The notes beneath the pieces were generated by a model. The model did no database searches and was not told where the DNA came from. It was given only the letters and a program-made list of their open reading frames with translations. Below, in pieces: positions 1,506 to 27,443 of a stretch of DNA of 27,443 bases. Numbering within the stretch: the first letter of the stretch is position 1; each line of letters begins with the position of its first letter. The position numbers and the translations under genes were made by a program. The stretch is from Nitrospinota bacterium (GTDB taxonomy: Bacteria; 2-12-FULL-45-22; JACOWJ01): NCBI GenBank assembly GCA_016176845.1, contig JACOWJ010000005.1:1-27443 (forward strand), in the 5' to 3' direction.

Positions 1506-4165
1506 CGTTCCGTCCTCCCCTCGGCTCTGATGAAATCCATCACCTCCACCAGGTCGGCGAAGGGCGTCGTCCACTCTTCTTTTCCCTTCCGGCGAAAGGG
1601 AAAATCGGGGTCATCGGACCATTCTTTTCCCCACCAGTCTGCCAGGATCCTTCCAAAGGCTTGTTGGTCATCTTCCTTCAGCCGGCTCAGTTGATAGAAG
1701 AGGAAGTTGCGGCTGAAGGGCCGGCCCCTGGCCAGGCTTTGGCGAATGGCATAGAGTTGAGAGCGAGGGAACCGCCGGCTGCGGAGCCCTTCGGCAGCCC
1801 TTAATAGCCTTTCCAGCTCATCGAGCGTCAAAGGGCGCTCGGTAAGATGGAGCTCTTCTGTGGCGATCTCCATCTGATAAGTCTTCCGGCGGAGCTCGTC
1901 CAGATCGGAGGAGCCTTCGGCGGTCAGGATCAAGAAGTCCACCGTCCCGCCCTTCTGGTGCTCCTCCCGTCCTTTGTTTAGTTTCCAGGCCCTCTTCTTG
2001 GCCGACTTCAGGAGTTGCTCGGCCAGATGCTGCAGGAAATAGATAGGGCTATGGGCCTTGGCAATGACTACCCCCGCTGACAGGGTAAGTTCTCGTCCCA
2101 TCCGGAACTCTTCCTCGAAACGGCGGCAGATCGAGAGGGCGATCCTCAGTGCCCGGTCGGCCGGGACGATGAGGAAAAGGTCGTCTCCGCCAATGCTGAC
2201 GATCTCGAAGGGATGAATGAGCTCTTTCGCCTGGTCCTGGTCTTTCGTCTCCATTGGCTCCAGATGCTCGGCCAGGCTTTGGAAGACACAGCCCTCGACC
2301 GTCTCTAAGAGCGTTCGGGCGAAGAGGCGGTATTCGGCCGGCGTGGAGATACGCTCCAGGTGACCGCCGATGTCATTGCCGTCAGCGTAGATGACCCCCA
2401 CGTAGCCCCGAGCCTGACCATTGGCGCAGTTACCCAGGCTGGCCAGGTCGCTGGCCACCTCGATCCGATTCTCTCCTCCCAGCCTCTCCACCGCCTCCTG
2501 ATAGCGGCGACAGCCTTCTTCCCGGCTATTCTGGAGATACTTCCAAAAACCTTTGACGAAGGATCCCTTTCCACTGCCTGAGTCTTTCCTCTGCTTGATG
2601 CCGGCCCTCCGCTTGCCCAGGCAGACCTCGCACAAGTAGAGCTCCTGGGGCTGCGGCTCCAGGTGGGTGGCCGGCCGGGTTTGACAGGAACTGCATAGCC
2701 GGGCGAAAGGGGTGAGCTCAGGGGTAGGGACCTCCTCTCGCTCCTCTTTGGCCCGCTTGAGCTGGTAATTGAGCTGAGCGGTGATCTCCCCAAAGCGCTT
2801 GGTCTTGAGGAGCCGTTGGAAGAGGGCCGTGGTCCCGTCCTGGACCTTCTGGCCCTCGTCTGAGAGTGGGGCCAGGTAGGCGTCCAGGGCAGCCCGTTCG
2901 GCAGGATTCGCCCCCTTCCACAGCGGCCGCAAGCGGTCAAACCAACTGCGGTAGGGCTCGAAGCCATAAGGGAGCTCAAAGAGATGAAGGGAATGGGATG
3001 CGACACTGATGGTGGCCCATCCAGTCTCTTCCAGGTAGAGCCGCTCCAGGGCATGGGCGATCGCCTCGGCCAGATAAGCCGGTGCCAGGATGAGGGCCCC
3101 TCCGCCAGCGGCATAGAGGATGGCTTCGGGTGCCAGAAGGTGCTTTTGCCCCTGGTAAGGGATGCCCTTCCGGCAGAGGAGCTCTTCCATCCCTTCCCGA
3201 TTGAGCTGATCCAGGATGCGGCTGGCCCCACGCACCTCGGGCAGCCGGGCGCTCTCAAAGACGTAGCGTTTGACCCGATCGACATCGGCTAGAATCAGGC
3301 TCAACGGGGGGATCGCGTCAAACTCCTGCTCCTCCCATGTTTTCATCCGATTCAGGAGGTTGAAGATGGCCTCCCCACTGGTAGGATAGCGGGGAAAGCC
3401 ATGCTCGCCCCGGAGTTGGGCGATTTCCTCGAACTTCTTCGACCAGTCCTCTTCAAAGAGCTCGGTGACCCGGTCCACTCCGGAAGCAGTATCCGCGTGG
3501 CAGATGGCCTCCTCAAAAAAACCAAGCGGGCCCTGGCCGGCCTCTCGGTAGTAGCGGGCATCGTGGTGTCTCAAAGCCACGTCGGCCACTGCCTCCACCA
3601 GCTCCCGGCTCAAAACAGGCTTGAGCAGCCTTTCCACTGCCTCCCTCCCTCGCTCCCGATGTCCCGAGGGAGGAAACTTCCCCAGGTCATGGCCGAGGGC
3701 CGCAATCCGCGTCACCTGGAAAAGCTCTTCAGCACCCAGGGGCGGGGAGGCTCGCACGATGGAGTCTGGCCCTTTTCCCCGGCTCAGGGCTTCCTGGATC
3801 AGGCCGGCAGCAATGGCCGAGGTCAGCAGCGAATGGTCAGCCAGCGTGCTGCGGTTGGCCCCCCGGCGGGTGTCGGCCGGCAGGGAGGGCCATTCTTTCT
3901 GGGGGGATTCGGAGAGGGCATGGTGGAAGATGTCCGCCGTAGCTGTTAGAAGTCTTTGCCGGTCCGAAGTTTCCCGATTGGGAAGCCGGGTACCAATGAC
4001 TCTGAGGAATTCATCTCGCAATGCCTCCAGTTCGCGCGCATCCTCGGGAAGACCATAATAACGGCCACGCCAAAGGTCCTCGAACAGGATCAGCTTTTGC
4101 CCCGTCGAGGCCTCAACGTAGCTCATGTCTTTTAGGACGAATTCAGAAGGATGATATTCCCGCAT
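1502..4165 (-). CDS. cas10: Cas10, large subunit of type III CRISPR effector (HD + Palm GGDD)
   Basis: This 887-residue protein is the signature subunit of a type III complex. An N-terminal HD nuclease domain shows DHS at 110-112, ALGHDLGKFP around 156-165, and RHHD at 199-202; HD domains cut ssDNA during transcription. A zinc finger follows, with C491-x2-C494 and C512-x2-C515. The Palm/cyclase region has YADGNDIGG near 593-601 and SIGGDD at 657-662; intact GGDD in this family makes cyclic oligoadenylates from ATP when target RNA binds. Both active sites look intact. The start ATG has AGGAAGG about 8 nt upstream, and the stop overlaps the csm3-like start. No CARF or other cyclic-oligoadenylate-responsive effector is visible in the window. 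Neighbours csx10 and cas6 favour subtype III-D over III-A or III-B. Confidence 0.96.
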   Translation of the reverse strand: MREYHPSEFVLKDMSYVEASTGQKLILFEDLWRGRYYGLPEDARELEALRDEFLRVIGTRLPNRETSDRQRLLTATADIFHHALSESPQKEWPSLPADTRRGANRSTLADHSLLTSAIAAGLIQEALSRGKGPDSIVRASPPLGAEELFQVTRIAALGHDLGKFPPSGHRERGREAVERLLKPVLSRELVEAVADVALRHHDARYYREAGQGPLGFFEEAICHADTASGVDRVTELFEEDWSKKFEEIAQLRGEHGFPRYPTSGEAIFNLLNRMKTWEEQEFDAIPPLSLILADVDRVKRYVFESARLPEVRGASRILDQLNREGMEELLCRKGIPYQGQKHLLAPEAILYAAGGGALILAPAYLAEAIAHALERLYLEETGWATISVASHSLHLFELPYGFEPYRSWFDRLRPLWKGANPAERAALDAYLAPLSDEGQKVQDGTTALFQRLLKTKRFGEITAQLNYQLKRAKEEREEVPTPELTPFARLCSSCQTRPATHLEPQPQELYLCEVCLGKRRAGIKQRKDSGSGKGSFVKGFWKYLQNSREEGCRRYQEAVERLGGENRIEVASDLASLGNCANGQARGYVGVIYADGNDIGGHLERISTPAEYRLFARTLLETVEGCVFQSLAEHLEPMETKDQDQAKELIHPFEIVSIGGDDLFLIVPADRALRIALSICRRFEEEFRMGRELTLSAGVVIAKAHSPIYFLQHLAEQLLKSAKKRAWKLNKGREEHQKGGTVDFLILTAEGSSDLDELRRKTYQMEIATEELHLTERPLTLDELERLLRAAEGLRSRRFPRSQLYAIRQSLARGRPFSRNFLFYQLSRLKEDDQQAFGRILADWWGKEWSDDPDFPFRRKGKEEWTTPFADLVEVMDFIRAEGRTER

Positions 4166-4254
4166 AGCCGACCTTCCTTCTTGACGGTTGTCTCTTAGAT
4201 AGCCATTGTTTTGGTCTTAAGGTGAAATGGATCGCATCCTCCACTCCATCACCT

Positions 4255-4350
4255 CTACTGACCTTCTTGTTCTTGGCGGGCTACAAAATCCAAGACGGCT
4301 TTCTCGAACTGCTCGAAATCGCCGATTCGTTCTTGCAATATCTTGATCAT
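4255..4350 (-). CDS. Short 31-residue ORF, possible gene remnant upstream of cas10
   Basis: This reading frame runs from an ATG at 4350 to TAG at 4255, on the same strand as cas10 and about 90 bp upstream of it. The product begins MIKILQERIGDFEQF and continues as an amphipathic, charged helix rich in Glu and Gln. Codon choice looks coding-like, but nothing of it is recognised with certainty. The ATG sits directly against a GGAAATTCCTAT sequence that resembles the dispersed 19-bp motif found elsewhere in the window. It could be the C-terminal end of a gene cut by a repeat insertion, or a small antitoxin-like peptide. Confidence 0.3.
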   Translation of the reverse strand: MIKILQERIGDFEQFEKAVLDFVARQEQEGQ

Positions 4351-4370
4351 ATAGGAATTTCCTTTTTTTC

Positions 4371-4444
4371 AGATTCCTCAGTCGCTGTCGCTCCTTCGGA
4401 ATGACAGATTGTATGCCTGTCATTCCGAGCGAAGCGAGGAATCT
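4371..4444. repeat. REP-like palindrome (AGATTCCTC...GAGGAATCT)
   Basis: The ends AGATTCCTC and GAGGAATCT are inverted, with further pairing between CGGAATGACAG and CTGTCATTCCG around a GATTGTATGC centre. It is related in layout to the palindrome at 6488-6556 and resembles widespread bacterial intergenic palindromes. It lies in the spacer upstream of cas10 and may be an inert mobile repeat or an RNA hairpin. Confidence 0.8.
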
Positions 4445-4509
4445 AATTTAATCATAAAAAGTTCCTTCTAAAATGAAAATTTCTGCGAACCATTACGTTT
4501 AAATTTATC

Positions 4510-4528
4510 GCATAGGAATTTCCATTTT
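4510..4528 (+). repeat. Dispersed 19-bp motif, copy 1
   Basis: GCATAGGAATTTCCATTTT occurs here, on the minus strand at 6558-6576, and on the plus strand at 21164-21182. This copy and the 6558 copy also share AAATYTATC to the left. Two AGCTATGAGCT units follow it here, as related sequence does at 21164. It is identical across the three sites, which argues for recent spread or a conserved function. Confidence 0.85.
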
Positions 4529-4582
4529 CAGCTATGAGCTTTGACCTACGAGCTATGAGCTAATTTAATACCAAAGTTTGAA

Positions 4583-4600
4583 ACAAGGGAAAGCCCTTGT
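4583..4600 (-). terminator. Possible cas6 terminator hairpin
   Basis: ACAAGGG and CCCTTGT form a 7-bp stem with a 4-nt loop, 19 nt past the cas6 stop. On the minus strand it is followed by TTTCAAACTTT, a poor T-tract, so termination is only suggested. Confidence 0.4.
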
Positions 4601-4618
4601 CAAGCCTCCCATCCCCTC

Positions 4619-5590
4619 TCACCCCACCACCTCATAGCGCCCCAATCCGAAGCTAGTCCCCTTGCCCACGTGGAGCCATTCGCCCAGCCGGATCAGGGGC
4701 ATGAAGGGCCCCAGATCCCCCACGAAGGAGGCCTCCCCCACAAATCCCCCCAGCATCATCCGCCTATCTTGCCGGGCAGAGTACCGCTCCCAGTCATACC
4801 AGCGCAGCTCCCGACGGCTCAGCCCCACCCCCTCGGCCCGGGCGATCCACCCCCGAAAGTCCCATCCCTCGGGGTCCAGGCTGCAGTGGAAGTAGGCCAG
4901 GGCCGACAGGCGCCGCATCAGGCTGCGGGCCAAAATGTGGAACTCCAGGTCCAGGCAGAGGTCCTCCTGATACCGGATCCGGGTCGGCGTCAGGAAGCGC
5001 AGGGAGAGGGCCTTGCGGTCGTGATCCTCCTGCCGGGGCCGCCCGGGATAGTGCGTCGTGGGGGACCCCAGCAGGGCCCCCTTCTCTTTGGAATAGAGGC
5101 GCCGGCGGCGGCTTTGCCCCTCGAGGCCGAAGACTTCCTGCAGCCGGTAGCAGCCCCGCCCCTTGCCCAGGCCCACCTTGCCCAGCTCGCTGAAGGCCAG
5201 GACGAAATAGGGCAGGTAGTCGGCGGCCCGGCCGACCAGCCGCAGGCCGAAGGAGAGAGATTCTCCAGGGGCATAGACTTGCTTAGGCTCCGAAGGAGGG
5301 AGCAAAACGAAGGGGTGGGGGATGTTGGAATATTTGCGCAACCGGCGAGCGTCGGGGGGCGGGGGGGTCTCGAAGATCGTGAAGTAGGCGCACTTGGGAC
5401 CCAAGAGGCAGGTGGGGCAGGGACGCCCCTTCAGGGGGCAGGCCACCTGCTTGAAGGCGTGGCCAAAGGCCCCTCTCAGGGTCGAGCCTTTGTACTCAGG
5501 CAGGAGGAGCTGTCCCTCCGCTTGGATGACGAACTCGAAAGCGGAAAGCCCGATCTCCTCCAAAACGTCGAGGCCGCCGTCTCTCCCCAC
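4619..5590 (-). CDS. cas6: Cas6 family CRISPR pre-crRNA endoribonuclease
   Basis: This 323-residue protein cuts CRISPR transcripts within each repeat to make crRNAs for the effector. The N-terminal part has the Cas6/RAMP pattern LPEYKGSTLRGAFGHAF near 31-47, followed by a four-cysteine cluster (CPLKGRPCPTC...C near 51-67) that may bind zinc. The C-terminus ends in GKGTSFGLGRYEV, the glycine-rich loop typical of the Cas6 C-terminal domain. The start is a GTG at 5590, with AGGGAGG four nt upstream; no better ATG exists. It is on the same strand as cas10 but is separated from it by the repeat-filled spacer, so it may be transcribed on its own. Just upstream lies a MITE-like insertion that could have altered its promoter. 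The catalytic residues of Cas6 proteins vary and I cannot assign them here. Confidence 0.9.
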   Translation of the reverse strand: MGRDGGLDVLEEIGLSAFEFVIQAEGQLLLPEYKGSTLRGAFGHAFKQVACPLKGRPCPTCLLGPKCAYFTIFETPPPPDARRLRKYSNIPHPFVLLPPSEPKQVYAPGESLSFGLRLVGRAADYLPYFVLAFSELGKVGLGKGRGCYRLQEVFGLEGQSRRRRLYSKEKGALLGSPTTHYPGRPRQEDHDRKALSLRFLTPTRIRYQEDLCLDLEFHILARSLMRRLSALAYFHCSLDPEGWDFRGWIARAEGVGLSRRELRWYDWERYSARQDRRMMLGGFVGEASFVGDLGPFMPLIRLGEWLHVGKGTSFGLGRYEVVG

Positions 5591-6368: not shown

Positions 6369-6487
6369 CTGGTGGGAGAGGGTTGGGGTGAGGGAGTATT
6401 TTCATGTCAATAATCGAGGGAAAACCGAAAATTCCACCAGAAAACCTCATGTTTTTCAATGAGTTAGGGATAGGGGTTGATGAACTT

Positions 6488-6557: not shown

Positions 6558-6576
6558 AAAATGGAAATTCCTATGC
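6558..6576 (-). repeat. Dispersed 19-bp motif, copy 2
   Basis: This is the reverse complement of GCATAGGAATTTCCATTTT, identical to copies at 4510 and 21164. The TAG stop of the TOTE-type fragment (6571-6573) lies inside it, so the break point of that gene coincides with the repeat. Confidence 0.85.
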
Positions 6577-6930
6577 GATAGATTTATGGGTGCATTCAGA
6601 GCATTTTATATTTGGCTTACCACATAACCCAGTTTTCCACTCATTTAGACAAACAGGCATATACCCCGATTTGCCTTCTTTATTTTGCCATCTCTTGGCA
6701 TAAACATCATCTCTGCCTTTAAATAGAGACATGAACAGTTTGATTTTTTCCTTAGATTCGCTGTTTCGATTAATTGTATAGACGAGCTTGTTTTCTATAA
6801 TATCATCAAAAACAACCGCCTCTTGTTCAAAAATGCCAAGTTGTATCTTTAATCTTTTATTTTCACCCTTTAAGCTATTGTTTTCAACGAGCAACGCTTG
6901 ATACTTCTCAAATAACTCCTCATAATCCAT
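6571..6930 (-). CDS. N-terminal fragment of TOTE-type primase/helicase conflict protein
   Basis: This 119-residue ORF starts at an ATG with AAGGAG about 5 nt upstream. Residues 1-40 form a Leu/Glu/Lys coiled coil. Residues 60-115 contain KEKIKLFMSLFKGRDDVYAKRW, then GKSGYMPVCLNEW and a four-cysteine cluster C-G-K-P...C-S-E-C. This matches the start of the archaeo-eukaryotic primase domain in TOTE conflict systems, normally fused to a superfamily II helicase in proteins of 800 or more residues. Here the frame ends in a dispersed repeat right after the last cysteine, so the primase core and helicase are gone. It is AT-rich, unlike its neighbours, which suggests foreign origin. The fragment is probably non-functional, though its start signals are intact. 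Confidence 0.65.
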   Translation of the reverse strand: MDYEELFEKYQALLVENNSLKGENKRLKIQLGIFEQEAVVFDDIIENKLVYTINRNSESKEKIKLFMSLFKGRDDVYAKRWQNKEGKSGYMPVCLNEWKTGLCGKPNIKCSECTHKSIA

Positions 6931-13088: not shown

Positions 13089-13173
13089 GTTTTACCGTGA
13101 AAATGCCCGAGCCTCTCGGAACCCCATTTTCATTCTCGGAGGCGGCCAACTTTGCTTGGCCATGGCGGTTTCG
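13089..13173. repeat. Family B element, copy 1
   Basis: This ~85-bp sequence aligns with 17700-17783 and 22189-22272. Read on the plus strand, TGAAAATG and CATTTTCA make a perfect 8-bp stem enclosing a CCGAG/CTCGG hairpin, and GGCCAA/TTGGCC makes a second stem; outer ACCG and CGGT can close the whole. It fills the ybaB-recR gap. Its orientation relative to the downstream gene (recR) is opposite to that of copies 2 and 3. Confidence 0.8.
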
Positions 13174-13182
13174 GGATAGGCG

Positions 13183-13503
13183 TTAGAAGAGACCAGGGAT
13201 CCGCAGGCCACCGGTTAACTTGCCCATCTCCTCCGTGACCATCTCCCGGGATTTCCGAAGGGCCTCGTTGACCGCAGCCACCACCAAATCCTCCAGCATT
13301 TCGATATCATTCGGGTCGATCACCGCAGCATCGATCTTGATGGAGAGGACTTCCTGCCGCCCATTGGCTACAACCATGACCATCCCTCCACCTGCCGAGG
13401 CTTCTACGGTCTTCTCTCCCGCTTTTTCCTGCATTTCCAGGAGCTTCTCTTGCATCTCCTGGACTTGCTTCATCAAGTTTCCCATCCCTTTAGGGGGTTT
13501 CAT
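13183..13503 (-). CDS. ybaB: YbaB/EbfC family nucleoid-associated protein
   Basis: This 106-residue DNA-binding protein is a small homodimer. Residues 8-30 form the charged MKQVQEMQEKLLEMQEKAGE coiled-coil arm; a central sheet includes GGGMVMVVANGRQEVLSIKID, and a helix with DLVVAAVNEALRKSREMV follows, all typical. The ATG at 13503 has AGGAGAAG close upstream. It lies between dnaX and recR, as in most bacteria, and is separated from each by a hairpin or repeat of under 100 bp. Confidence 0.95.
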   Translation of the reverse strand: MKPPKGMGNLMKQVQEMQEKLLEMQEKAGEKTVEASAGGGMVMVVANGRQEVLSIKIDAAVIDPNDIEMLEDLVVAAVNEALRKSREMVTEEMGKLTGGLRIPGLF

Positions 13504-13520
13504 TGGCTTCTCCTAAGCGC

Positions 13521-13590
13521 CTATCCGAAAATCTCCCAGAAGGCCTCCCCGGACCGAAAAGGAAGAGGAGCAAGGGGGGCTTCCGGATAG
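13521..13590. repeat. Imperfect inverted repeat between dnaX and ybaB
   Basis: CTATCCG (13521-13527) and CGGATAG (13584-13590) are inverted, with GGCCTCCCC near 13542 and GGGGGGCTTCC near 13575 pairing inside. It could attenuate transcription between dnaX and ybaB or be another dispersed palindrome. No T-tract follows. Confidence 0.55.
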
Positions 13591-13594
13591 ACCG

Positions 13595-15529
13595 TTAAAT
13601 GCTTTCGAGCTCATCCTCTTTTTCGAGGTTAGATAAGCCCTCTGCTTCGCTTGCCGGTTCAGAGAAGAAAAGGGGAAAAGCCTTCGGCCAGTTTCCTTCG
13701 GGATAGATCCTTCCACCAAAGATCTCCTGGGCCTCTCTCACGATCCCCTCCAGCTCCACCGATCCGCTGGGACCTCCGGGGGCCTTTGCCCCGCCCTCCT
13801 TCAATCTCCCCAGGGAAATGCCGGCGGGTTCAGCGATTCGCCAAGAGGCCTCCGCCCCATCTCCCCCAGAGCTCAGGGGCTGTTTGAGGAGCGATGCTTC
13901 TGCGCGCCGCGCCAGGCCATCTCCTTTGGCGGAGGGCTCGGTCGGCGCCTCCTTTTGCGCGAACTCTACCTTGAGCGCTCGGCCGGTGACCTGCCGGGCC
14001 AATTCTTCGACGACTCTCAGCTTATCCCCATCCTGGACGAAGGATAGGAAGAAAGAGGGACATCCGGCCTCTAGCTCCAAGATGAGCTTTTCCTGGCCCA
14101 GCTCTTTTACCAGAACATGTTGTTGCAGAAAGGAGGCCAGCAGCTCGTCTTTTTTCTCCAGATGGGTTTTGATCGCCTGCCAGGCATGCCGCTCCGCATC
14201 CCTTGGGCTATCCGCCCCCTCCTCCTCGACCGGCTTGGTGGGGACCCGCGTCCCCCCAGGCGTCTCCTCCGCCCCGGAACGGGACTGCACGGCAACCGGG
14301 ATCTCGGCGTTCTCGGCGATTCCCTTTTCAGGCAGTTCACCCCCCCTTAGCTCGGATGGCACCCCCATAACCCGCTGGCCCGAAAGCCTCCTTTCCATCT
14401 CCTCCATCCGCTGGATGACCTCTCCGATCGGACGACCCGGATGGATCTGGGTCATCCGGACCAACGCCATCTCCAGGATCAGGTGGGGATGAAAAGAGGA
14501 CCTCATCTCCCCTTCGGCCCGAGTCAGGAGGGTAAAGAGCTGGTCAAGCTCTTCCAGGCTGACCTTTTGGCTTTGCTGCCCCATCCGCTCTACTTCAGCC
14601 GGGGGCAGATCGATCAGCTTGAGGGCCTCTTTGGAGACCCTCAGAACGATCAGATGACGGATAGTTTCCAGCAGCTCTCGGCAAAGGTCCCGGATATCGT
14701 ATTGGTCGATCGAGAGATCCTGGAAAAGGCGCAGCACCTCCGAAGGATTCTTCCCCAGGATCGCCCCGGTGAGGGCAAATAACCACTCGCGATCCACGCG
14801 ACCTAAAACGGCCGCCAGGAGGTCATTCCCCACCTCACCCCCATGAGCAAAGGAGGCCACCTGGTCCAGCAAGCTCTGGGCGTCGCGCATGCTGCCGCGG
14901 GCCTTCCGAGCGATATGGGATAAGATCTCGGGGGGAAGGTTCATCCCTTCCTGCTGAGAGATGAGCTCCAACCGGGTCAAGATGTCCATCAGGGGGAGCG
15001 GCTTCAGGTCGAAACGTTGGCAGCGCGACAAGATGGTGACGGGGATCTTGTTAGGCTCCGTGGTAGCCAGGATGAAGACCACGTGAGAGGGAGGCTCTTC
15101 CAGGGTCTTGAGCAGGGCGTTGAAGGCCTCCTTGGTCAGCATGTGGACTTCATCGATGATGTAAACCTTGTAACGTCCCCTCGCCGGGGCATACCGGGTG
15201 CTCTCTCTCAACTCCCGGATCTCATCGATGCCCCGATTCGAGGCCCCATCGATCTCCAGGACATCCACGGAAGAGCCCGCGGTGATCTCCCGGCAGAAGA
15301 GGCAGCGGTTACAAGGCTGGGGGGTGGGGCCTTCCTGACAATTCAAGGCCTTGGCGAGGATGCGGGCGGTGGTCGTCTTGCCCACGCCGCGGGTGCCGGT
15401 AAACAGGTAGGCATGAGCGATCCGCCGGTTCAAGATGGCGTTCTGAAGGGTCCGACAGACATGGGCCTGGCCGATCACCTCTTCGAAGCCCTGAGGCCTC
15501 CACTTGCGGGCTGTAACGAGATACGACAT
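13595..15529 (-). CDS. dnaX: DNA polymerase III subunit gamma/tau
   Basis: This 644-residue protein is the clamp-loader ATPase and, in its long form, the link to polymerase cores. Walker A is GTRGVGKT at 45-52; a zinc module has C64, C73, C76 and C79; Walker B is IIDEVHM near 124-130, followed by the TTEPNK sensor and the SRC motif (168-170) with its arginine finger. AAA+ lid and collar domains extend to about 370. The last 270 residues are a low-complexity, Pro/Glu/Gly-rich stretch with one folded segment around 455-520 (tau domains). It heads the dnaX-ybaB-recR series. The SRP RNA terminator lies just upstream, and the start site is weakly supported by a ribosome site. Confidence 0.97.
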   Translation of the reverse strand: MSYLVTARKWRPQGFEEVIGQAHVCRTLQNAILNRRIAHAYLFTGTRGVGKTTTARILAKALNCQEGPTPQPCNRCLFCREITAGSSVDVLEIDGASNRGIDEIRELRESTRYAPARGRYKVYIIDEVHMLTKEAFNALLKTLEEPPSHVVFILATTEPNKIPVTILSRCQRFDLKPLPLMDILTRLELISQQEGMNLPPEILSHIARKARGSMRDAQSLLDQVASFAHGGEVGNDLLAAVLGRVDREWLFALTGAILGKNPSEVLRLFQDLSIDQYDIRDLCRELLETIRHLIVLRVSKEALKLIDLPPAEVERMGQQSQKVSLEELDQLFTLLTRAEGEMRSSFHPHLILEMALVRMTQIHPGRPIGEVIQRMEEMERRLSGQRVMGVPSELRGGELPEKGIAENAEIPVAVQSRSGAEETPGGTRVPTKPVEEEGADSPRDAERHAWQAIKTHLEKKDELLASFLQQHVLVKELGQEKLILELEAGCPSFFLSFVQDGDKLRVVEELARQVTGRALKVEFAQKEAPTEPSAKGDGLARRAEASLLKQPLSSGGDGAEASWRIAEPAGISLGRLKEGGAKAPGGPSGSVELEGIVREAQEIFGGRIYPEGNWPKAFPLFFSEPASEAEGLSNLEKEDELESI

Positions 15530-15550
15530 GGAACTTTATTGAACTCGCAA

Positions 15551-15593
15551 AGAAAAAGAAACAAGGCGTAAGGAGGATATCCTCTTTACGCCT
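15551..15593 (-). terminator. Terminator of the tRNA-Ser / SRP RNA transcript
   Basis: AGGCGTAAGGAGGAT and ATCCTCTTTACGCCT form a 15-bp stem (15564-15593) with one mismatch or wobble. On the minus strand TTGTTTCTTTTTCTTT follows. It ends the SRP RNA and lies 20-60 bp before dnaX. Confidence 0.88.
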
Positions 15594-15624
15594 CGCAGGA
15601 TCAAGCGGTCGTGCACCCATCATT

Positions 15625-15883
15625 GACTTTTCCCCCCAGGCGCCCATGGTGTAGTTGGCTCGAGCCAGGCACCCTTGCAACACCCGAGAGTCCTTGCTTA
15701 CCGCTGCTTCCTTCCGGACCTGACGGGGTTTACAAGCTCTCGTCGTACAAGACCCAGCTGTCAACGCCACTTGCACCAGGGCCGACCCTGAAAGAAAGAG
15801 AGCCGCTGATTGGGAATTCCGCCCCGCTATAGCGGATTGCGGGTTACAGGGCACCGCTAACTCCCCGCCTAGCACGACCAACC
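15625..15883 (-). ncRNA. ffs: Signal recognition particle RNA, long bacterial form with Alu domain
   Basis: The minus strand contains the universal SRP core GTCAGGTCCGGAAGGAAGCA (about 15726-15707), flanked by GAGAGC and CTCTC arms of helix 8. Upstream, TAGCGGTGCCCTGTAACCCG (about 15857-15838) and GCTATAGCGGGG match the Alu domain of long SRP RNAs such as that of Bacillus. Between the two, CCTGGTG and CACCATGG arms can form helix 5. SRP RNA binds Ffh to target nascent membrane proteins. The Alu domain excludes the short 4.5S form. Ends are estimated from pairing and the 5' GTCGTGCTAGG start. It follows tRNA-Ser by ~28 nt on the same strand and is ended by a strong terminator. Confidence 0.93.
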
Positions 15884-15909
15884 TACGAACTTCTTGCCGC
15901 CTCTGCACC

Positions 15910-16001
<92 letters not shown>

Positions 16002-16014
16002 AAAAATCATGCAT

Positions 16015-16043
16015 AGTATAACAAAATAGAACTCATCGCGCAA
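16015..16043 (-). promoter_or_regulatory. Promoter of tRNA-Ser / SRP RNA
   Basis: On the minus strand TTGCGC (16043-16038), 17 bp, TATACT (16020-16015). Transcription would start near 16008, a few bases before the tRNA. No second promoter is evident between the tRNA and the SRP RNA, so the two are probably cotranscribed. Confidence 0.72.
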
Positions 16044-16102
16044 CCTCATCGACTCCTCTCCGGGCAATGTCCATTTCTTCCGCTTCTTCCGCCCTTTGGC
16101 CT

Positions 16103-17311
16103 TCATGCCCCGTACTTGGCCAGGCGCCGGGCATGGGCCAGCATCAACCCCATCAAGTTCAGGGCCGGCTGTCGCCCCAAACTGCCCCGCAAACAGCTCA
16201 GCTCATCAAATCGCTCCACCTCATCGATCCATCCCCAATGCGAATAGAGCAATACCGGCACCGGATGCCAGCTGTGGCTTCTCATCAGGGACGGGGTGGA
16301 ATGATCCCCCGTGACCACCAACACATCCGGCTCTAAGGCCACGGCCTGCGGGATCAGCCGATCGACCTCCTCCAGGACCCGCACCTTGCCCTCAAAATCG
16401 CCATCCTCGCCCCGGTTGTCGGTCTCTTTGATGTGCAGGAAGAAGAAGTCATAGGCCGGGTAATTTTCCCTCAAGAGGCGAAACTTCTGGGCGTTGTTGG
16501 GAATCAAGGGGACCCCATCCATCCCCAAAAGCCTGGCCAATCCCCGGTACATGGGGTAGCTGGCCAGGGCCAGGCTGCGCAGGCCAAAGCGCTCCTCCAA
16601 GAAGCGGAAGCGGCGATATTGGCTAAAGCCGCGCAGGAGGAGCATGTTGGCCATCTCTTCGTTGGCCAGGATCTCTTGGGCCTGGGCCAGGAAATCATTG
16701 ACCAGTCTAAGGGTTCGCTCCGCTGCGGGGTCGAGGGCGCGGGGCTTCAAGGGAGAGACTCCCGTCCGTTGGGGGTCGGTATCGGTGACCGCATAGGAGA
16801 GGCCTTGGCCCCTAAGGATCAAGACCCCTCGGTGCTCCTTTTCGGTCTCGAAGAACCACTCCACGTCGGGGGAGAGAAGGATATTCTCTCGAAGCTTGCG
16901 GCAGAGGCGTCGGTTCACCTCATCGGAGATGCGCCCAGGCCGCCGGTCTGCGATGATTCCCCGCTCGTCCAGGGTGATGAAGTTGGCCCGGGCGGCCACG
17001 TCTTGGGGATGGAGGGGAAAATCGATCCCCAAGGCCGAGAGGACCCCCCGCCCGATGTTGTCTCGAAAGGGGTCATATCCGAAGAGGGCCAGGTGGCTCG
17101 GCCCGCTGCCGGGGGTAATGCCCGGTCCCACCGGGTCCAGAAGACCACAGGCAGAATTCGCTGCCAGTTGATCGAGGTTGGGAAGGTAAGCAACCTGTAG
17201 CTCACTGCCCCCTTTCGCCCGTACAGGCAGTCCCCCCAAACCGTCGAGGACTACCAGAATGATCTTGGTCTGATTGGGGATAACCAGCTCCTCCAATATC
17301 GCCGGGTCCAT
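16103..17311 (-). CDS. apgM: 2,3-bisphosphoglycerate-independent phosphoglycerate mutase, archaeal type (ApgM)
   Basis: This 402-residue enzyme interconverts 3- and 2-phosphoglycerate in glycolysis and gluconeogenesis using two divalent metals and a phosphoserine. It belongs to the alkaline-phosphatase superfamily: LVVLDGLGG with metal ligand D23, PGSGPSHLALFGYDP with the likely nucleophile S69, HIKETDNRGEDGD near 302-314, and VVTGDHSTPSLMRSHSWHPVP near the C-terminus. Length and motifs fit the archaeal-type family also found in thermophilic and anaerobic bacteria, not the GpmI type of ~510 residues. The ATG at 17311 has AAAGGAG 7-8 nt upstream. It is monocistronic, with a possible promoter about 230 bp upstream. 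Confidence 0.93.
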   Translation of the reverse strand: MDPAILEELVIPNQTKIILVVLDGLGGLPVRAKGGSELQVAYLPNLDQLAANSACGLLDPVGPGITPGSGPSHLALFGYDPFRDNIGRGVLSALGIDFPLHPQDVAARANFITLDERGIIADRRPGRISDEVNRRLCRKLRENILLSPDVEWFFETEKEHRGVLILRGQGLSYAVTDTDPQRTGVSPLKPRALDPAAERTLRLVNDFLAQAQEILANEEMANMLLLRGFSQYRRFRFLEERFGLRSLALASYPMYRGLARLLGMDGVPLIPNNAQKFRLLRENYPAYDFFFLHIKETDNRGEDGDFEGKVRVLEEVDRLIPQAVALEPDVLVVTGDHSTPSLMRSHSWHPVPVLLYSHWGWIDEVERFDELSCLRGSLGRQPALNLMGLMLAHARRLAKYGA

Positions 17312-17428
17312 CTCCGATCTCCTTTAGCCTTACTTGCGATAATTTCTCTTGCAAAGCGGGTAGCAAGTCACAGCGACAGCTGTGCACAGGGAGCAGTTCT
17401 GACCCGCCCCCCGGGGGTGATCCTTCAA

Positions 17429-17498
17429 GTTAGGGATTAGGGATTAGGGACTAGGGGCTAGTGAAGAAGAACTTTTGCAAAACCCTAGCCTCTAGTCA
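17429..17498. repeat. Family A palindrome, copy 2
   Basis: Left-arm units TTAGGGATTAGGGA lead to CTAGGGGCTAG. A spacer with GTGAAGAAGAACTTTTGC and the right arm CCCTAGCCTCTAG follow. The spacer matches copy 3 (reverse complement) at most positions and copy 1 at many, so this is a true family rather than random G-rich sequence. Confidence 0.88.
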
Positions 17499-17537
17499 CT
17501 TAAAAATAAAAATTCCTCTAAGATATATATACTTTAG

Positions 17538-17565
17538 AGCATATTAACGGTGGCCTCAAAGTCAA
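17538..17565 (-). promoter_or_regulatory. Possible apgM promoter
   Basis: On the minus strand TTGACT (17565-17560), 16 bp, TATGCT (17543-17538). It faces apgM but sits ~230 bp upstream, with the family A palindrome in the leader. Confidence 0.45.
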
Positions 17566-17699
17566 GGGAGGATTTCATCCTCGGTCCGGCCCGTGATCCC
17601 TGCCATCCTCAAAAGCAGGGCCGCGGTAAGGGGTGAGCAAAAATACTTCATTGGACGGAGCCATAAAGATATGATAAGCTAAAGAAGCTTCAGGAGGAG

Positions 17700-17783
17700 G
17701 TTTTACCTTGAAATTGCCAGTGTCTCTCTAAAGAACATTTTCATCCGCGGAGCGACCAAGCCGGCTTGGCCATGGTGGTTTCT
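17700..17783. repeat. Family B element, copy 2
   Basis: It aligns with 13089-13173 and 22189-22272. TGAAATTG and CATTTTCA pair at 7 of 8 positions; CCAAG and CTTGG make the second stem; ACC and GGT can close. It ends 38 nt before the greA ATG, in the greA leader. Confidence 0.82.
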
Positions 17784-17821
17784 TTTGAGAGGGCTTGTCG
17801 AGGAAATTGGAGGAAGGCGAG

Positions 17822-18304
17822 ATGGGAAACAATCATAAAGTCCCGATGACCCGGGAAGGATACGAGGCACTGAAGCAGGAGTTGGGTTACCTGAAGGGTG
17901 TGGTTCGTCCCAAGGTGATCGAGGAGATCCGGCAGGCCCGGGAGCATGGGGATTTGAGCGAGAACGCGGAGTACCATGCGGCGAAGGAGAAGCAGGCCCA
18001 TACCCATGCCAAGATTTACCAACTGGAGGACAGGCTCTCCAGGGCGCAGATCATCGAGGCTCAAAACCTGGCAGCAGAAAAGGTTGTCTTTGGGGCCGTG
18101 GTAAGGATGATAGATCTGGAGACGGGCGAGGAGAAGCGATTCAAACTGGTGGGACAGGACGAGGCCGATGCACAGAAAGGCAGTATTTCCATCATGTCGC
18201 CGGTTGCCCGGGCCTTGATCGGGCGAGAGGTGGACGACGAGATCGAGGTTCGAGTTCCGAAGGGGGTGATCCGCTATCAGATCTTGGAAATCTATTCCGA
18301 ATAA
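17822..18304 (+). CDS. greA: Transcription elongation factor GreA
   Basis: GreA (160 residues) stimulates RNA cleavage by stalled RNA polymerase. The N-terminal coiled coil begins MTREGYEALKQELGYLKGVVRP, and its tip shows GDLSENAEYHAAKEKQ with the conserved acidic residues near the DLSENAEY loop. A C-terminal FKBP-like domain has SISIMSPVARALIGREVDDEIEVRVPKG. The ATG at 17822 is preferred over one 27 nt upstream because GGAGGAAGG is ideally spaced and family N-termini agree. A family B element lies in its leader. The UPF0182 gene follows after 46 bp on the same strand. Confidence 0.97.
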   Translation: MGNNHKVPMTREGYEALKQELGYLKGVVRPKVIEEIRQAREHGDLSENAEYHAAKEKQAHTHAKIYQLEDRLSRAQIIEAQNLAAEKVVFGAVVRMIDLETGEEKRFKLVGQDEADAQKGSISIMSPVARALIGREVDDEIEVRVPKGVIRYQILEIYSE

Positions 18305-18350
18305 GGGGGAAGGTCTGTCGGGCCAGCCGGGAGGGGCTTACAAGAGAGGG

Positions 18351-21080
18351 TTGGCCGGACTCCTGTTGGTTTTGGGGCTGGGCGCCTTGCTGCTCGGAGG
18401 GGAAGGCGTACGCCTTTACACCGACTGGCTCTGGTTTCAAGAGGTCGGTTATACCGCAGTCTTTCTGAAGATCCTGGGGACGCAGATCTGGTTGGGGATC
18501 GCCTGCGGCCTTCTCTCCGCCCTGTTCCTATGGATCAACCTCTCCGGGGCTACCCGTTCGGGGATGGACCAGGTCCCGATGCTGGTGGAAGAGCTGGAAG
18601 AGCTTTGGGAAACCCCTCACTGGAACCAGTGGACCACGTACCGGAGGATCCTCGTGCTGGTCGCCTCCCTGGGTTTCGGCCTGCTGGTGGGAGCCCAGGC
18701 ATCCGGGGCGTGGGAGACCTGGCTGAGATACGTGGAGTCCGTTCCTTTTGGCCAAAAAGACCCCCTATTCGGGCGGGAGGTCAGCTTCTATGTCTTCACG
18801 CTTCCCCTCTGGCGGCAGCTCCACTCCTGGTTTATGTTGGTGGTCTTTTTTTCCTTGCTGGGGACCGGGGTGGCCTATTTCTTGGAAGGAAAAATTTGGG
18901 TCAACCAACGGGGGGTCAACGTCTCCGGCCGGGCCAAGAGACATCTGTCGCTCTTGGGCGGATTGGGGGTGGCTGGGCTGGCTATTGGGTTCTACTTGGG
19001 CCGTTACGAGCTCCTTTACTCCTCTCGCAGCATGATCTTTGGGGCAAGTTACGCGGATGTCGAGGCCCTGCTGCCCGCTTTGACGGTTCTATCCATCCTG
19101 GCGGGAATCGGATCGATCCTCTTCTTCTTCTATTCCTTCCGCCCCCAGGGCTTGCTCCCTTGGGTTACCCTGGGCCTCCTGGCGGTCGCTTATATCCTGG
19201 GAGGCCATCTCTATCCCCTCTTGCTGCAACGGCTGGTCGTCTTGCCGAACGAGCTGGGCAAGGAGACCCCTTATATCGCCCGGAACATCGTTTACACCCG
19301 ACAAGCTTACGGTCTGGAGGACGTCGAGGAGCGCCGGCTTTCGGCTGAGGCCGCCTTGGGCTGGCAGGATCTGCAGGAGAACCAATCGACGCTCCAGAAC
19401 ATCCGCCTTTGGGATCGTCAGCCCCTCCTGGAGACTTTCAGCCAGATCCAGGAGATCCGCACGTATTATGCCTTTGCCTCGGTGGACAACGATCGCTACC
19501 GCTTCAATGGGGACTATCGCCAGGTCATGCTCTCCCCCCGGGAGATCTCCTCGTCCAATTTGCCCAGCCGTACCTGGATCAATGAGCATCAGGTCTTCAC
19601 CCATGGCTATGGGCTCACGCTGGGGTTGGTGAACCGGGTTACCGCCGAAGGGCTTCCCGAGCTGCTGATCAAGGACATCCCCCCAGCCACCACGGTGAAC
19701 CTCAAGGTGGAGCGCCCTGAGCTCTACTATGGGGAGTTGACCGACCCTTACGTCTTCCTCCGGACCCGCTCGAAGGAATTTGATTATCCGGCGGGGGAGG
19801 AGAACGTTTACAGCCAATACCAGGGAAGGGGCGGGGTCCCTTTGAGCTCTTCCTTCCGGAAGGCCCTCTTTGCCCTTCGGTTCGGTTCCCTGAAGACCTT
19901 CCTCTCCCAGGACATCACCTCTGAAAGCCGGGCACTGTTTTATCGTCGGATAGACCGGCGCGTCCGCCGGATCGCCCCCTTTCTGAGATACGACCGGGAC
20001 CCCTACCTGGTGATCTCCGGGGGGCGGCTCTACTGGATCTACGATGCCTACACCACCACCGATCGCTACCCCTATTCTTTGCCCATCCGAGGGGTGGGCA
20101 ACTACATCCGCAACTCGGTGAAAGCGGTCATCGATGCCTATCATGGGGAGGTAAAGTTTTACATCGCCGACCCCCGTGACCCGATCATCCGCACTTACAG
20201 CCGGATCTTTCCGGGGACCTTCCTGCCCTTGGAGGCCATGCCGGAGGATTTGCGCCGGCATTTGCGCTATCCCGAGGACCTTTTTGCCCTCCAGACCCAC
20301 CTCTACGCCACGTATCATATGACCACCCCCCAGGTCTTTTACAACAAAGAGGACCTGTGGGAGATCCCCAGCGGGATCGGCAAAGAGGGGCGGCCCATGG
20401 AACCCTATTATATGATCATGAAGCTACCCCAGGAGAAACGAGAGGAGTTCATTTTGATGTCGCCCTTTAACCCCAAGGGCAAGGACAATTTGGCGGCCTG
20501 GATGGTGGCCAAGTGCGACCTCCCCGAGTACGGGAAGCTGGTGGTCTATCGCTTTCCCAAACAGAAGCTGGTTTACGGACCGAAACAGATCGAGGCCAGG
20601 ATCAACCAGGACGCCGAGATCTCCCGGCAGGTCTCCCTTTGGGATCAGCGGGGCTCTCAAGTGATCCTGGGGACCCTGTTGGTCATCCCGGTGAAAGAGT
20701 CGCTCATTTACGTTCAGCCTCTTTATCTGAAGGCGGAGAACGGAAAGATCCCGGAACTGAAGCGGGTCATCGTGGCTTACGAGAACCATATCAGCATGGA
20801 GGAGACCCTGGAGGAGGCCCTGTCGAAGCTATTCCAAAGGCCGGCAGTTGCGGCTGGGGAGGCTCCCTCCATCGCGGAGGCCCCAGCCGCCGAGCCCGGG
20901 AAAGAAGGGGAGAGGAGGGAAGATGCCCGTCCCCGAGGAGAGGGGGTCCCTTCGGATCCGGCGGCCCAGGCCTGGGAACATCTCCAGAAGGCCAAGGAGC
21001 TGCAAAGGGGAGGGGACTGGGCCGGCTACGGAGAGGAGCTCAAGAGGCTGGAGGAGGCCTTGAAAAAGCTGCGAAGATAG
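18351..21080 (+). CDS. UPF0182 family integral membrane protein
   Basis: This ~909-residue protein belongs to UPF0182 (COG1615), of unknown function. About seven hydrophobic spans lie in the first 300 residues (near 1-18, 36-60, 98-120, 155-175, 200-217, 243-268, 272-295); between the first two is the diagnostic YTDWLWFQEVGY. A large presumed extracytoplasmic domain follows, with RTYYAFASVDNDRY, SRTWINEHQVFTHGYG and YGELTDPYV, all family blocks. The last 100 residues are low-complexity and end in a charged Leu/Lys/Glu helix. The listed start is a TTG at 18351; the reading frame is open further left (a YKRG segment precedes), so the true start is uncertain. It may share a transcript with greA. 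Confidence 0.88.
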   Translation: MAGLLLVLGLGALLLGGEGVRLYTDWLWFQEVGYTAVFLKILGTQIWLGIACGLLSALFLWINLSGATRSGMDQVPMLVEELEELWETPHWNQWTTYRRILVLVASLGFGLLVGAQASGAWETWLRYVESVPFGQKDPLFGREVSFYVFTLPLWRQLHSWFMLVVFFSLLGTGVAYFLEGKIWVNQRGVNVSGRAKRHLSLLGGLGVAGLAIGFYLGRYELLYSSRSMIFGASYADVEALLPALTVLSILAGIGSILFFFYSFRPQGLLPWVTLGLLAVAYILGGHLYPLLLQRLVVLPNELGKETPYIARNIVYTRQAYGLEDVEERRLSAEAALGWQDLQENQSTLQNIRLWDRQPLLETFSQIQEIRTYYAFASVDNDRYRFNGDYRQVMLSPREISSSNLPSRTWINEHQVFTHGYGLTLGLVNRVTAEGLPELLIKDIPPATTVNLKVERPELYYGELTDPYVFLRTRSKEFDYPAGEENVYSQYQGRGGVPLSSSFRKALFALRFGSLKTFLSQDITSESRALFYRRIDRRVRRIAPFLRYDRDPYLVISGGRLYWIYDAYTTTDRYPYSLPIRGVGNYIRNSVKAVIDAYHGEVKFYIADPRDPIIRTYSRIFPGTFLPLEAMPEDLRRHLRYPEDLFALQTHLYATYHMTTPQVFYNKEDLWEIPSGIGKEGRPMEPYYMIMKLPQEKREEFILMSPFNPKGKDNLAAWMVAKCDLPEYGKLVVYRFPKQKLVYGPKQIEARINQDAEISRQVSLWDQRGSQVILGTLLVIPVKESLIYVQPLYLKAENGKIPELKRVIVAYENHISMEETLEEALSKLFQRPAVAAGEAPSIAEAPAAEPGKEGERREDARPRGEGVPSDPAAQAWEHLQKAKELQRGGDWAGYGEELKRLEEALKKLRR

Positions 21081-21084
21081 AAGA

Positions 21085-21157
21085 TAGGGGCCAGGGGTTA
21101 GCCAAAGGTCTTCTTCACTAGCCCCTAATCCCTAACCCCTAATCCCTAACCCCTAAC
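21085..21157. repeat. Family A palindrome, copy 3
   Basis: It starts 5 nt after the UPF0182 stop. The left arm GGGGCCAGGGGTTAG, spacer CCAAAGGTCTTCTTCAC and a right arm of CCCTAAT/CCCTAAC units are the reverse complement of the other copies. It may also serve as a terminator for the upstream gene. Confidence 0.88.
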
Positions 21158-21163
21158 TTAACT

Positions 21164-21182
21164 GCATAGGAATTTCCATTTT
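21164..21182 (+). repeat. Dispersed 19-bp motif, copy 3
   Basis: GCATAGGAATTTCCATTTT, identical to the copies at 4510 and 6558 (reverse). It lies between a family A palindrome and the AGCTCATAGCT-type inverted repeat. Confidence 0.85.
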
Positions 21183-21192
21183 AAGCTAAATA

Positions 21193-21265
21193 AGCTCATG
21201 GCTCATAGCTCATAGCAAAGGCAAAAAGCCAGCTCGTCTTTGCTATGAGCTATGAGCTATCAGCT
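21193..21265. repeat. Long inverted repeat upstream of htpX
   Basis: Arms at 21193-21220 and 21238-21265 pair at 26 of 28 positions around a 17-nt loop. They are built from AGCTCATAGCTCATAGC units. The same unit (AGCTATGAGCT) occurs twice at 4530-4561. It ends 39 nt before the htpX start and could form a strong hairpin in its leader or a terminator for upstream transcription. Confidence 0.85.
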
Positions 21266-21304
21266 AACTTGTAGCAACCATCCAAGAGAAAAGGAGGCAA
21301 ATCC

Positions 21305-22159
21305 ATGAACGTTTTGAAGACGACCTTCTTCATGGCCGGGCTGACCCTGCTCTTTATCCTGGTGGGTGGGGCCCTGGGAGGGCAGCAAGGCATGGTCCTT
21401 GCCTTCGTCCTGGCCTGTGCGATGAACCTGGGGACCTATTGGTTCAGCGACCGCATTGTGCTTCGCATGTACGGGGCCCAGGAGGTCTCCCCCATGGAGG
21501 CCCCGGAGCTCTACGAGATCGTTAAGGGGTTGGCCCACCGGGCCGGCATCCCCATGCCCAAGCTTTACATCATCCCCAGCGAGGCACCCAACGCCTTCGC
21601 CACCGGCAGGAACCCGGAGCATGCGGCCGTGGCGGTGACCGAGGGCATCCTGCGCCTCCTCTCCCGAGATGAGCTGGCGGGTGTGCTGGCCCATGAGCTC
21701 TCTCACGTCAAGCATCGCGACATCCTCATCGGGACGATCGCCGCCACCATCGCGGGGGCGATCAGCATGCTGGCCAACATGGCCCAGTGGGCCATGATCT
21801 TCGGAGGGGGGAGAAGGGATGACGAGGATGGGGAGGGCGGGGGCCTGATCGGCACCCTGGCGATGATGATCCTGGCCCCTATTGCCGCCATGCTCATCCA
21901 GATGGCGATCTCCCGCTCCCGGGAATACCTGGCCGACGAGGGAGGGGCGAAGCTCAGCCACCCCCGTTACCTGGCCAGTGCCCTGCGCAAGCTGCAGCGG
22001 GGGGTGGAGCGGGTGCCCATGGCGGAAGCCACTCCGGCGACCGCCCACATGTTTATCGTGAACCCGTTTCGGGGGGAGGGGATCGTCCGGCTCTTCAGCA
22101 CGCATCCTCCCCTGGAGGAACGGATCCAGAGGCTGGAGTCGATGGCCCTGCGTCCTTGA
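21305..22159 (+). CDS. htpX: HtpX-family membrane zinc metalloprotease
   Basis: HtpX (284 residues) is a membrane-embedded M48 protease that clears misfolded membrane proteins under stress. Two membrane spans lie near 5-22 and 29-47. The zinc site is HELSH at 130-134 within [16 protein letters not shown], with the third ligand E207 in [13 protein letters not shown]. Two further spans (141-162, 182-203) frame an acidic, glycine-rich linker. [19 protein letters not shown] near 96-114 is family-typical. The ATG at 21305 has AAGGAGG 7-8 nt upstream. A long inverted repeat lies in its leader. Confidence 0.96.
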
Positions 22160-22188
22160 GGCCATTGCCATTGGGGTGTAGATGGGCA

Positions 22189-22272
22189 TTTAACCACGAA
22201 AATGCCAGGGGCTTTCTGAAGGAGATTTTCATCCACGGGGGCGACGAACCCTGCTGGGTCATGATGATTGGG
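22189..22272. repeat. Family B element, copy 3
   Basis: It aligns with copies 1 and 2. GAAAAT/ATTTTC make the first stem, and ACCC TGCT GGGT the second, with different letters but kept pairing. The closing stem is weak here. It lies between htpX and the exchanger, ending 50 nt before the latter's start. Confidence 0.78.
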
Positions 22273-26485: not shown

Positions 26486-27443
26486 TCAGGCGAGTATCTC
26501 GGGTCCTGGGTGGACAGTCTCACCCGAACGGAAACGTTGCTCAAGGATATGCTTCACTTCCTTAAAGGAGATGAAGAGACCGATGCCGGGATCACCATAT
26601 GTAATGTGCATTTACGACCCTGCCACACCGAGCATTCAGGCAGTGAAATGTGTTCCCATTGCGCTTGCCAAAACAACCGCAAAAAGAACACACCTGTGAC
26701 GTGTATGCAGCGTTTACAGAGGCATACGCAGCACCGCTACGCAGGCACCTCATTTCAATGGTTTCTTGCATTACCCCTTTCAACCACCCAGAAAAGTATC
26801 TTTTCACCTTCCTGGGAAGTTCTGTTTTCCCTTGATGATTAAAGTTTAAGTTTTCTCCAACAACTATCTCTGGTTGTTTTTGCTGAAAAAACTTGTGGAC
26901 CGCAGTGCCTATGTAAGTCTTGATCCTTTTCCTTGCAGCCCACTTTTGCCTGGCATATTTCTTCTTGCCTAAGTTGTTCTTTCGGATACGGGCTGCTTTC
27001 TCAAGATTGCCCTTCTTATTTGCTTTTTCTGCTACAGCCCAAATTTGATTACGCTTCTTATTCTTCTCACCAAGGCGATCTGATTCTGCTCGAAGGATCT
27101 TCCCTTGTTCCTCACCGTAACTATTTCCTTCCGAATCCATTAAAACATCCCCAAACCCTTTGTCAATTCCTGTTATCCTTTGTGTAGGGGCAAAAAATTT
27201 TTCGCCCCTACTTTCAGGTTTCGGATCTGGGCAATCTTCTTCCTCAGTGTAATGAATTTCTACTCGCTTCCCACGAAGGACTATTCTAATGGTCCCAGAA
27301 AACCTCCAGGGAGAACTTAATCGAAGGTGGATTCTATGGTAGGGAATTAAAGATATAATTCCCAACCACAGGCGTCCCTTCTCGTCTTCCTTGAGATCAT
27401 ACATATTTGCGTCTAATGTGAACGTCGTCGCCCTTTTTTGCTT
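26486..27443 (-). pseudogene. tnpB: IS200/IS605-family TnpB (RuvC-like RNA-guided nuclease), decayed; 5' end outside window
   Basis: The frame enters at the right edge and runs to TGA at 26592 (internal ATG at 27404). It has RuvC-I GIDKGFGD (D81 counting from that ATG), RuvC-II VVGENLNF (E184), a Lys/Arg-rich helix between, and a zinc ribbon with C239-x2-C242 and C255-x4-C260. The expected RuvC-III motif after the ribbon (AD-x-NAA) reads NAHYIW and stops: Asp is replaced and the frame is lost. The next frame continues GDPGIGLFISFKEVKHILEQ, a TnpB-like tail, to TGA at 26486. So a small deletion removed the third catalytic residue. TnpB cuts DNA guided by RNA from the element end; this copy should be inactive. 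No tnpA is in the window. Confidence 0.88.

What the first reader, a model, noticed from the sequence alone, without database searches (positions are those of the whole stretch)
13089..22272. Family B: an ~84-bp intergenic element with two hairpins and compensatory differences, three copies
Copies at 13089-13173, 17700-17783 and 22189-22272 align along their length. The first stem is TGAAAATG/CATTTTCA in copy 1 and is kept (7 of 8, 6 bp) in the others. The second stem is GGCCAA/TTGGCC, CCAAG/CTTGG and ACCC/GGGT, i.e. different letters with pairing kept. A short outer ACC...GGT helix could close a three-way junction in copies 1 and 2. Each lies close to a start codon (recR, greA, the exchanger), but copy 1 is in the opposite orientation to its gene, so a cis-regulatory riboswitch is unlikely. 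A structured mobile repeat, a small RNA or a protein-binding hairpin fits better. I do not recognise the family.
Basis: seen in the sequence. Interest (0 to 1): 0.72.

Follow-up and report, generated by a model that had tools for sequence, protein, structure and literature searches.

The report
Small two-hairpin mobile DNA repeat
The three look-alike stretches are copies of an ~80-bp "jumping" DNA repeat, present at least 90 times in this genome, that folds into a conserved two-hairpin shape, lands in runs of T, and has a related family in heat-loving Geobacillus bacteria, although nobody yet knows which enzyme moves it.

Summary
Confirmed and extended. The three window copies belong to a dispersed ~80-bp repeat with 91 matches in this 1.53-Mb, 68%-complete assembly. 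None was found in 144 other genomes, including the only same-order one, and there is no Rfam match.

It moves as a unit. Copies up to 98% alike sit in unrelated flanks. 77% lie outside called genes (24% expected). Filled and empty versions of other repeats place the insertion in a T-run behind a purine-rich tract, with no duplication beyond the Ts. Orientation to genes is random, which argues against a riboswitch or terminator.

Within this genome covariation is not significant. A pattern scan, however, led to a related repeat in Geobacillus/Parageobacillus, often in tandem, including one copy inserted in a TTTTT inside a rhodanese/MBL-fold gene that is intact in other Bacillaceae. Between the two consensuses all 18 proposed pairs are kept although 7 paired positions changed (3 compensatory doubles, P about 2e-4), which supports a three-way junction.

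Best reading: a transposase-free, structured mobile repeat, most like PATEs, probably moved in trans by a single-strand (Y1/HUH-type) transposase. That step is inferred: no Y1 gene is in this assembly, though the same-order genome has several.

The parts
13089..13172 (+). Copy 1: H1 13098-13105/13125-13132, H2 13144-13149/13156-13161, outer helix 13094-13097/13166-13169, left T-run 13090-13093, right TTT 13169-13171
   Evidence: CM R1 103 bits; sequence
17700..17782 (+). Copy 2, in the leader of greA: H1 17709-17716/17736-17743, H2 17754-17759/17766-17771, outer 17705-17708/17776-17779
   Evidence: CM R1 74 bits; sequence
22188..22271 (+). Copy 3, upstream of the Na/Ca exchanger gene: H1 22197-22204/22224-22231, H2 (weak) 22243-22248/22255-22260, outer 22193-22196/22265-22268
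   Evidence: CM R1 68 bits; sequence
13564..13596 (+). Empty target: end of another inverted-repeat family, matching the flanks of filled copy C2:21023-21106
6407..6481 (+). Empty target: part of a ~115-bp repeat that carries the element in copies C22:11709 and C56:2925

Best explanation
The three stretches are copies of a transposase-free small mobile element of about 80 bp. SHOWN: it is dispersed as a unit, inserts into T-runs (preferably RRRRN-TTTT) without a duplication longer than the Ts, is mostly intergenic in random orientation, and shares a three-helix fold (outer helix closing two hairpins) with a related family in Geobacillus/Parageobacillus. INFERRED: the hairpins are what a trans-acting recombinase recognises, as in PATEs and IS200/IS605 ends. 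The element would be excised or copied as a folded single strand and inserted 3' to the T-run by a Y1 (HUH) transposase encoded elsewhere, now lost, or in the missing third of the genome. Tandem, overlapping copies would be by-products of joining through the shared T-run. Sub-probabilities: mobile element about 0.95; fold conserved for function about 0.75; Y1-type mobiliser about 0.4.
For: 91 matches, E down to 2.5e-25. Copies up to 97.6% alike have flank identity at the random baseline of 0.46. Filled/empty comparisons exist in three repeat contexts. The left flank is T-run 75-99% and purine-rich at -6 to -9, the right flank is not, and no duplication exceeds the Ts. 77% are outside called genes against 24% at random. 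The Geobacillus relative scores up to 41 bits, E 4.6e-9. It has an insertion in TTTTT of a gene intact in Cytobacillus, Niallia and Priestia. Between the consensuses 18/18 pairs are kept with 7 changed paired columns, P 1.7e-4. The same-order genome holds Y1 genes.
Against: No Y1, IS110 or above-cut-off DDE_Tnp_1 gene is in the assembly. No transposase gene was seen beside the four right-half-only copies. A near-complete copy sits about 260 bp behind an ORF holding the sub-cut-off DDE hit, with no second end found. RNA folding energy is only slightly better than shuffles, z -0.7 and -1.0. A 2-4-bp T duplication with a 4-bp ACCG/CGGT terminal repeat cannot be told from none.
Confidence: 0.55

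Rival explanations
1. A MITE-like element: core ACCG...CGG(T) with a 4-bp terminal inverted repeat and a 2-4-bp T-run duplication, moved in trans by a DDE transposase.
For: The ACCG/CGGT ends are conserved, and the T-runs on both sides could be a duplication. The same genome has other inverted-repeat families, two of which the element invades. A weak DDE_Tnp_1 match lies near one divergent copy.
Against: The T-run target hides any duplication. The terminal repeat is only 4 bp, whereas MITEs are described with 15-30 bp (PMC3733652). Target preference is one-sided. The seven copies joined to family C have GTT left and mostly TTT right, which excludes a 3-bp TTT duplication there if they arose by insertion.
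Confidence: 0.22
2. A structured RNA element (leader regulator, terminator or small RNA) amplified by mobility and kept for a regulatory role.
For: Three helices are kept across phyla with compensatory changes; copies are intergenic; copy 2 lies in the greA leader.
Against: Strand is random relative to genes, 15 same and 20 opposite; only 7 convergent sites against 22 divergent. Fold energy is near shuffled. No Rfam family.
Confidence: 0.1
3. A REP/REPIN family with its RAYT lost from, or missing in, the assembly.
For: High copy number, intergenic position, palindromes, mosaics with other repeats, and RAYT-like Y1 genes in the same-order genome.
Against: No GTAG or CGTC tag at the base of the hairpins; the unit has two different hairpins, not an inverted REP pair; no preference for convergent sites (PMC3733652).
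Confidence: 0.1

Closest known systems
PATEs (palindrome-associated transposable elements) of Haloquadratum walsbyi (PMC3119063)
   Same: Too short for a gene, near-terminal palindromes, no long terminal inverted repeat, no target duplication beyond the T-run, invades other repeats
   Different: PATE palindromes match those of IS605-type transposons; no such match or Y1 gene was found here. The linker and outer helix conserved across phyla are not part of the PATE description read here.
Small mobile repeats, SMR-A/B (PMC3119063)
   Same: About 80-110 bp, no target duplication, preferentially hit other mobile repeats, mobiliser unknown
   Different: SMRs have prominent terminal inverted repeats and are commonly >95% alike; here the terminal match is 4 bp and mean pairwise identity is 75%
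REP/REPIN elements with RAYTs (PMC3116915, PMC3733652)
   Same: High-copy intergenic palindromic repeats forming mosaics
   Different: No GTAG/CGTC tag, no inverted pair of one REP, no RAYT in the assembly, no convergent-site preference

Membership tests
PATE | Near-terminal palindromes, no terminal inverted repeat | tested here: met
   H1 and H2 lie 4-8 nt from the ends; terminal match only ACCG/CGGT
PATE | No target duplication | tested here: inconclusive
   Nothing beyond the T-run, but 2-4 Ts could be duplicated
PATE | Palindromes related to an IS605-type transposon | tested here: not met
   No Y1 gene; the single TnpB is at the contig edge with no copy beside it; in pGEOTH01 the array lies outside the end of the TnpB element. 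Assembly 68% complete
REP/REPIN | GTAG or CGTC tag beside a 20-40-bp palindrome | tested here: not met
   Alignment of 45 copies
REP/REPIN | RAYT (Y1) in the genome | tested here: not met
   None in the own assembly; present in the same-order genome
MITE | 15-30-bp terminal inverted repeats | tested here: not met
   4-bp ACCG/CGGT only
SMR | Prominent terminal inverted repeats unrelated to known transposons | tested here: not met
   4-bp match only
Known RNA family (Rfam 15) | Match to a covariance model | tested here: not met
   Only SRP RNA and a tRNA in the window; nothing at E <= 10 for copy 1; only chance-level hits in a Geobacillus array

The most novel reading that the evidence does not exclude
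A cross-phylum family of ~75-85-bp elements with a conserved three-way junction and a CCCGGG-type linker, forming tandem arrays and inserting into T-runs, that is moved by a dedicated, still unidentified enzyme outside the Y1 and DDE classes (for example an RNA-templated or replication-linked route), i.e. a mobile-element class of its own.
Probability: 0.12. Interest if true: 0.75.

Novelty: new variant of a known kind. Interest (0 to 1): 0.5.

Why it matters
Most small transposase-free repeats are thought to be species-bound and structurally loose. Here one ~80-bp family keeps the same three-helix fold and T-run target preference in a barely sampled phylum and in Geobacillus/Parageobacillus. 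Those genera are culturable, so the mobiliser can be looked for by experiment. It also gives a covariance model that could be added to repeat and RNA annotation, and it explains otherwise puzzling intergenic structures as mobile DNA and not riboswitches.

Tried and rejected
Riboswitch, terminator or cis-RNA: no strand or position preference. Covariation inside this genome: raw counts exceed shuffles, but the tree-aware null, a home-made imitation of R-scape, gives no pair at E <= 1. Autonomous partner: no transposase beside the right-half-only copies, none for Y1 or IS110, one sub-cut-off DDE hit without a second element end. TnpB in the window as parent: one copy only, at the contig edge. Plasmid and phage collections with copy 1: no match. 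First viral scan: nothing. Of the 41 genome-contig pattern hits only Geobacillus icigianus showed the whole architecture; the rest have H1 only. IMG/VR scans with looser patterns gave one Geobacillus-type contig and one H1-only match. TnpB-linked array in pGEOTH01: the array lies outside the TnpB element's end.

Full report
OBSERVATION. The window copies align end to end with a consensus TTTTACCGTGAAAATGCCCGAGTCTCTCTGGAGCCCATTTTCATTCCCGGGGGCGGCCAACTTTGCTTGGCCATGTCGGTTT. A covariance model from 45 copies finds 91 matches at E <= 1e-3 in the 1.53-Mb assembly, about one per 17 kb; completeness is 68%, so more are likely. No match was found in 144 other genomes. The phylum is represented by only two held genomes.

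STRUCTURE. The consensus has H1 TGAAAATG/CATTTTCA, H2 GGCCAA/TTGGCC and an outer helix ACCG/CGGT. In 89 distinct copies 89% of cells pair, but a tree-aware null gives no significant pair and folding energies are close to shuffled ones. The window's own evidence for compensation is thus weak, and copy 3's ACCC/GGGT helix is out of register.

MOBILITY. Copies up to 97.6% identical have unrelated flanks. Two copies lie at the same point of a ~115-bp repeat whose other copies are empty: CATATTTTTCAATG against CATATTTTT[ACCG...CGGTTT]CAATG. Further filled/empty comparisons come from ends carrying CGGATAG: C2:21023 against C49, C1 and window 13564; C19:16757 against C7 and C29. The net insert is ACCG...CGGTTT after a T-run, or equivalently a shorter core with a duplication of Ts. 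The left flank is a T-run preceded by purines; the right flank shows no such preference. Tandem and overlapping copies occur (C16:43974-44514, C57, C14). Seven copies directly follow a second, similar two-hairpin repeat, family C.

PLACE. 77% of copies lie outside called genes against 24% for random placements. The gene caller was a simple codon-usage script, which misses small genes. Layouts: 22 divergent, 35 co-directional (15 same strand, 20 opposite), 7 convergent.

RELATIVES. A scan of GTDB genome contigs with the H1 pattern gave 41 hits. Only Geobacillus icigianus NZ_JPYA01000162.1 showed the whole architecture, as two tandem units. BLAST from there reached Geobacillus and Parageobacillus plasmids, and an IMG/VR pattern scan added one contig. 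The model built only from this genome scores them at up to 41 bits, E 4.6e-9 in 35 kb. H1 was part of the search pattern, so it is not independent evidence; the T-run, CCG, CCCGGG linker, H2 and following ATG are. In the Geobacillus consensus 7 of 36 paired columns differ from ours, yet all 18 pairs are kept, with three compensatory doubles (A-U/U-A in the outer helix, G-C/A-U and C-G/G-C in H2); random placement does as well in 1.7e-4 of trials. The alignment was made with the structure model, which favours it, but the columns are fixed by conserved neighbours; slid structures score far lower.

GEOBACILLUS MOBILITY. An identical unit sits in different flanks on P. toebii pDSM14590 and Geobacillus sp. 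CX412 p1. On CX412 p1 it interrupts a rhodanese/MBL-fold gene in a TTTTT; the gene is uninterrupted in Cytobacillus, Niallia and Priestia plasmids. On pDSM14590 the element edge coincides with the break of similarity to pGS18 at the T-run, A-run on that strand.

MECHANISM. Shown: unit mobility, T-run targeting, a kept fold. Inferred: recognition of the folded single strand by a Y1-type enzyme in trans, by analogy with PATEs and IS200/IS605 (PMC3119063, PMC7290912). Against: no Y1 gene in the assembly. For: the same-order genome has five Y1 matches, at least two of them RAYT-like proteins, and a third of this genome is missing.

VERDICT. A real, mobile, structured small repeat with a cross-phylum relative; not a member of REP, MITE, SMR or any Rfam family on the features tested; PATE-like, but with the IS605 link unmet. 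Literature searches for such a family in Geobacillus found nothing in the open library, which does not exclude a description elsewhere.

Noticed in passing
window 13519-13596: An inverted-repeat element (GCCTATCCGAAAA...TTCCGGATAGACC) upstream of dnaX; related ends elsewhere are invaded by the family studied here.
   Followed up: partly
window 6407-6481: Part of a ~115-bp repeat with ends GTACCTTCTCAATAA / TTTTTGAGAAGATAC, at least 6 copies in the assembly.
   Followed up: partly
L183 1501-1560 and six other sites: Family C, a second two-hairpin repeat (TACGAAAATAG...CATTTTCATGCGCTTGGGTGCCCATGGGGCATGACCRGTT), stands directly before seven copies; its H1 loop often holds a CTCACCCCAACCCTCTCCC palindrome.
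   Followed up: partly
L020, L038, L173 next to copies: A short repeat AGTTTAGCGGAACC...TCAGTCAAGAGGTTTT precedes several copies; its nature is unknown.
   Followed up: no
window 26592-27404: The only TnpB (Cas12f1-like TNB domain) found in the assembly, at the contig edge.
   Followed up: partly
window 804-5590: Type III CRISPR genes (RAMP, Cas10 with HD domain, Cas6).
   Followed up: no
window 6571-6930: A 119-aa ORF ending in a fragment of a TOTE conflict-system primase domain.
   Followed up: no
L193 976-1921: In the same-order genome a Y1 transposase gene is flanked by 28-nt inverted repeats containing GGGTCAGGTCTATTTT; the same GGGTCAGGTCTA motif lies near another Y1 gene (L195).
   Followed up: no
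L207 14398-14506: A Geobacillus relative with an extended H1 (TGAAAATACCC/GGGTATTTTCA) and a mostly different but fully paired H2 (GCCGAA/TTCGGC).
   Followed up: partly
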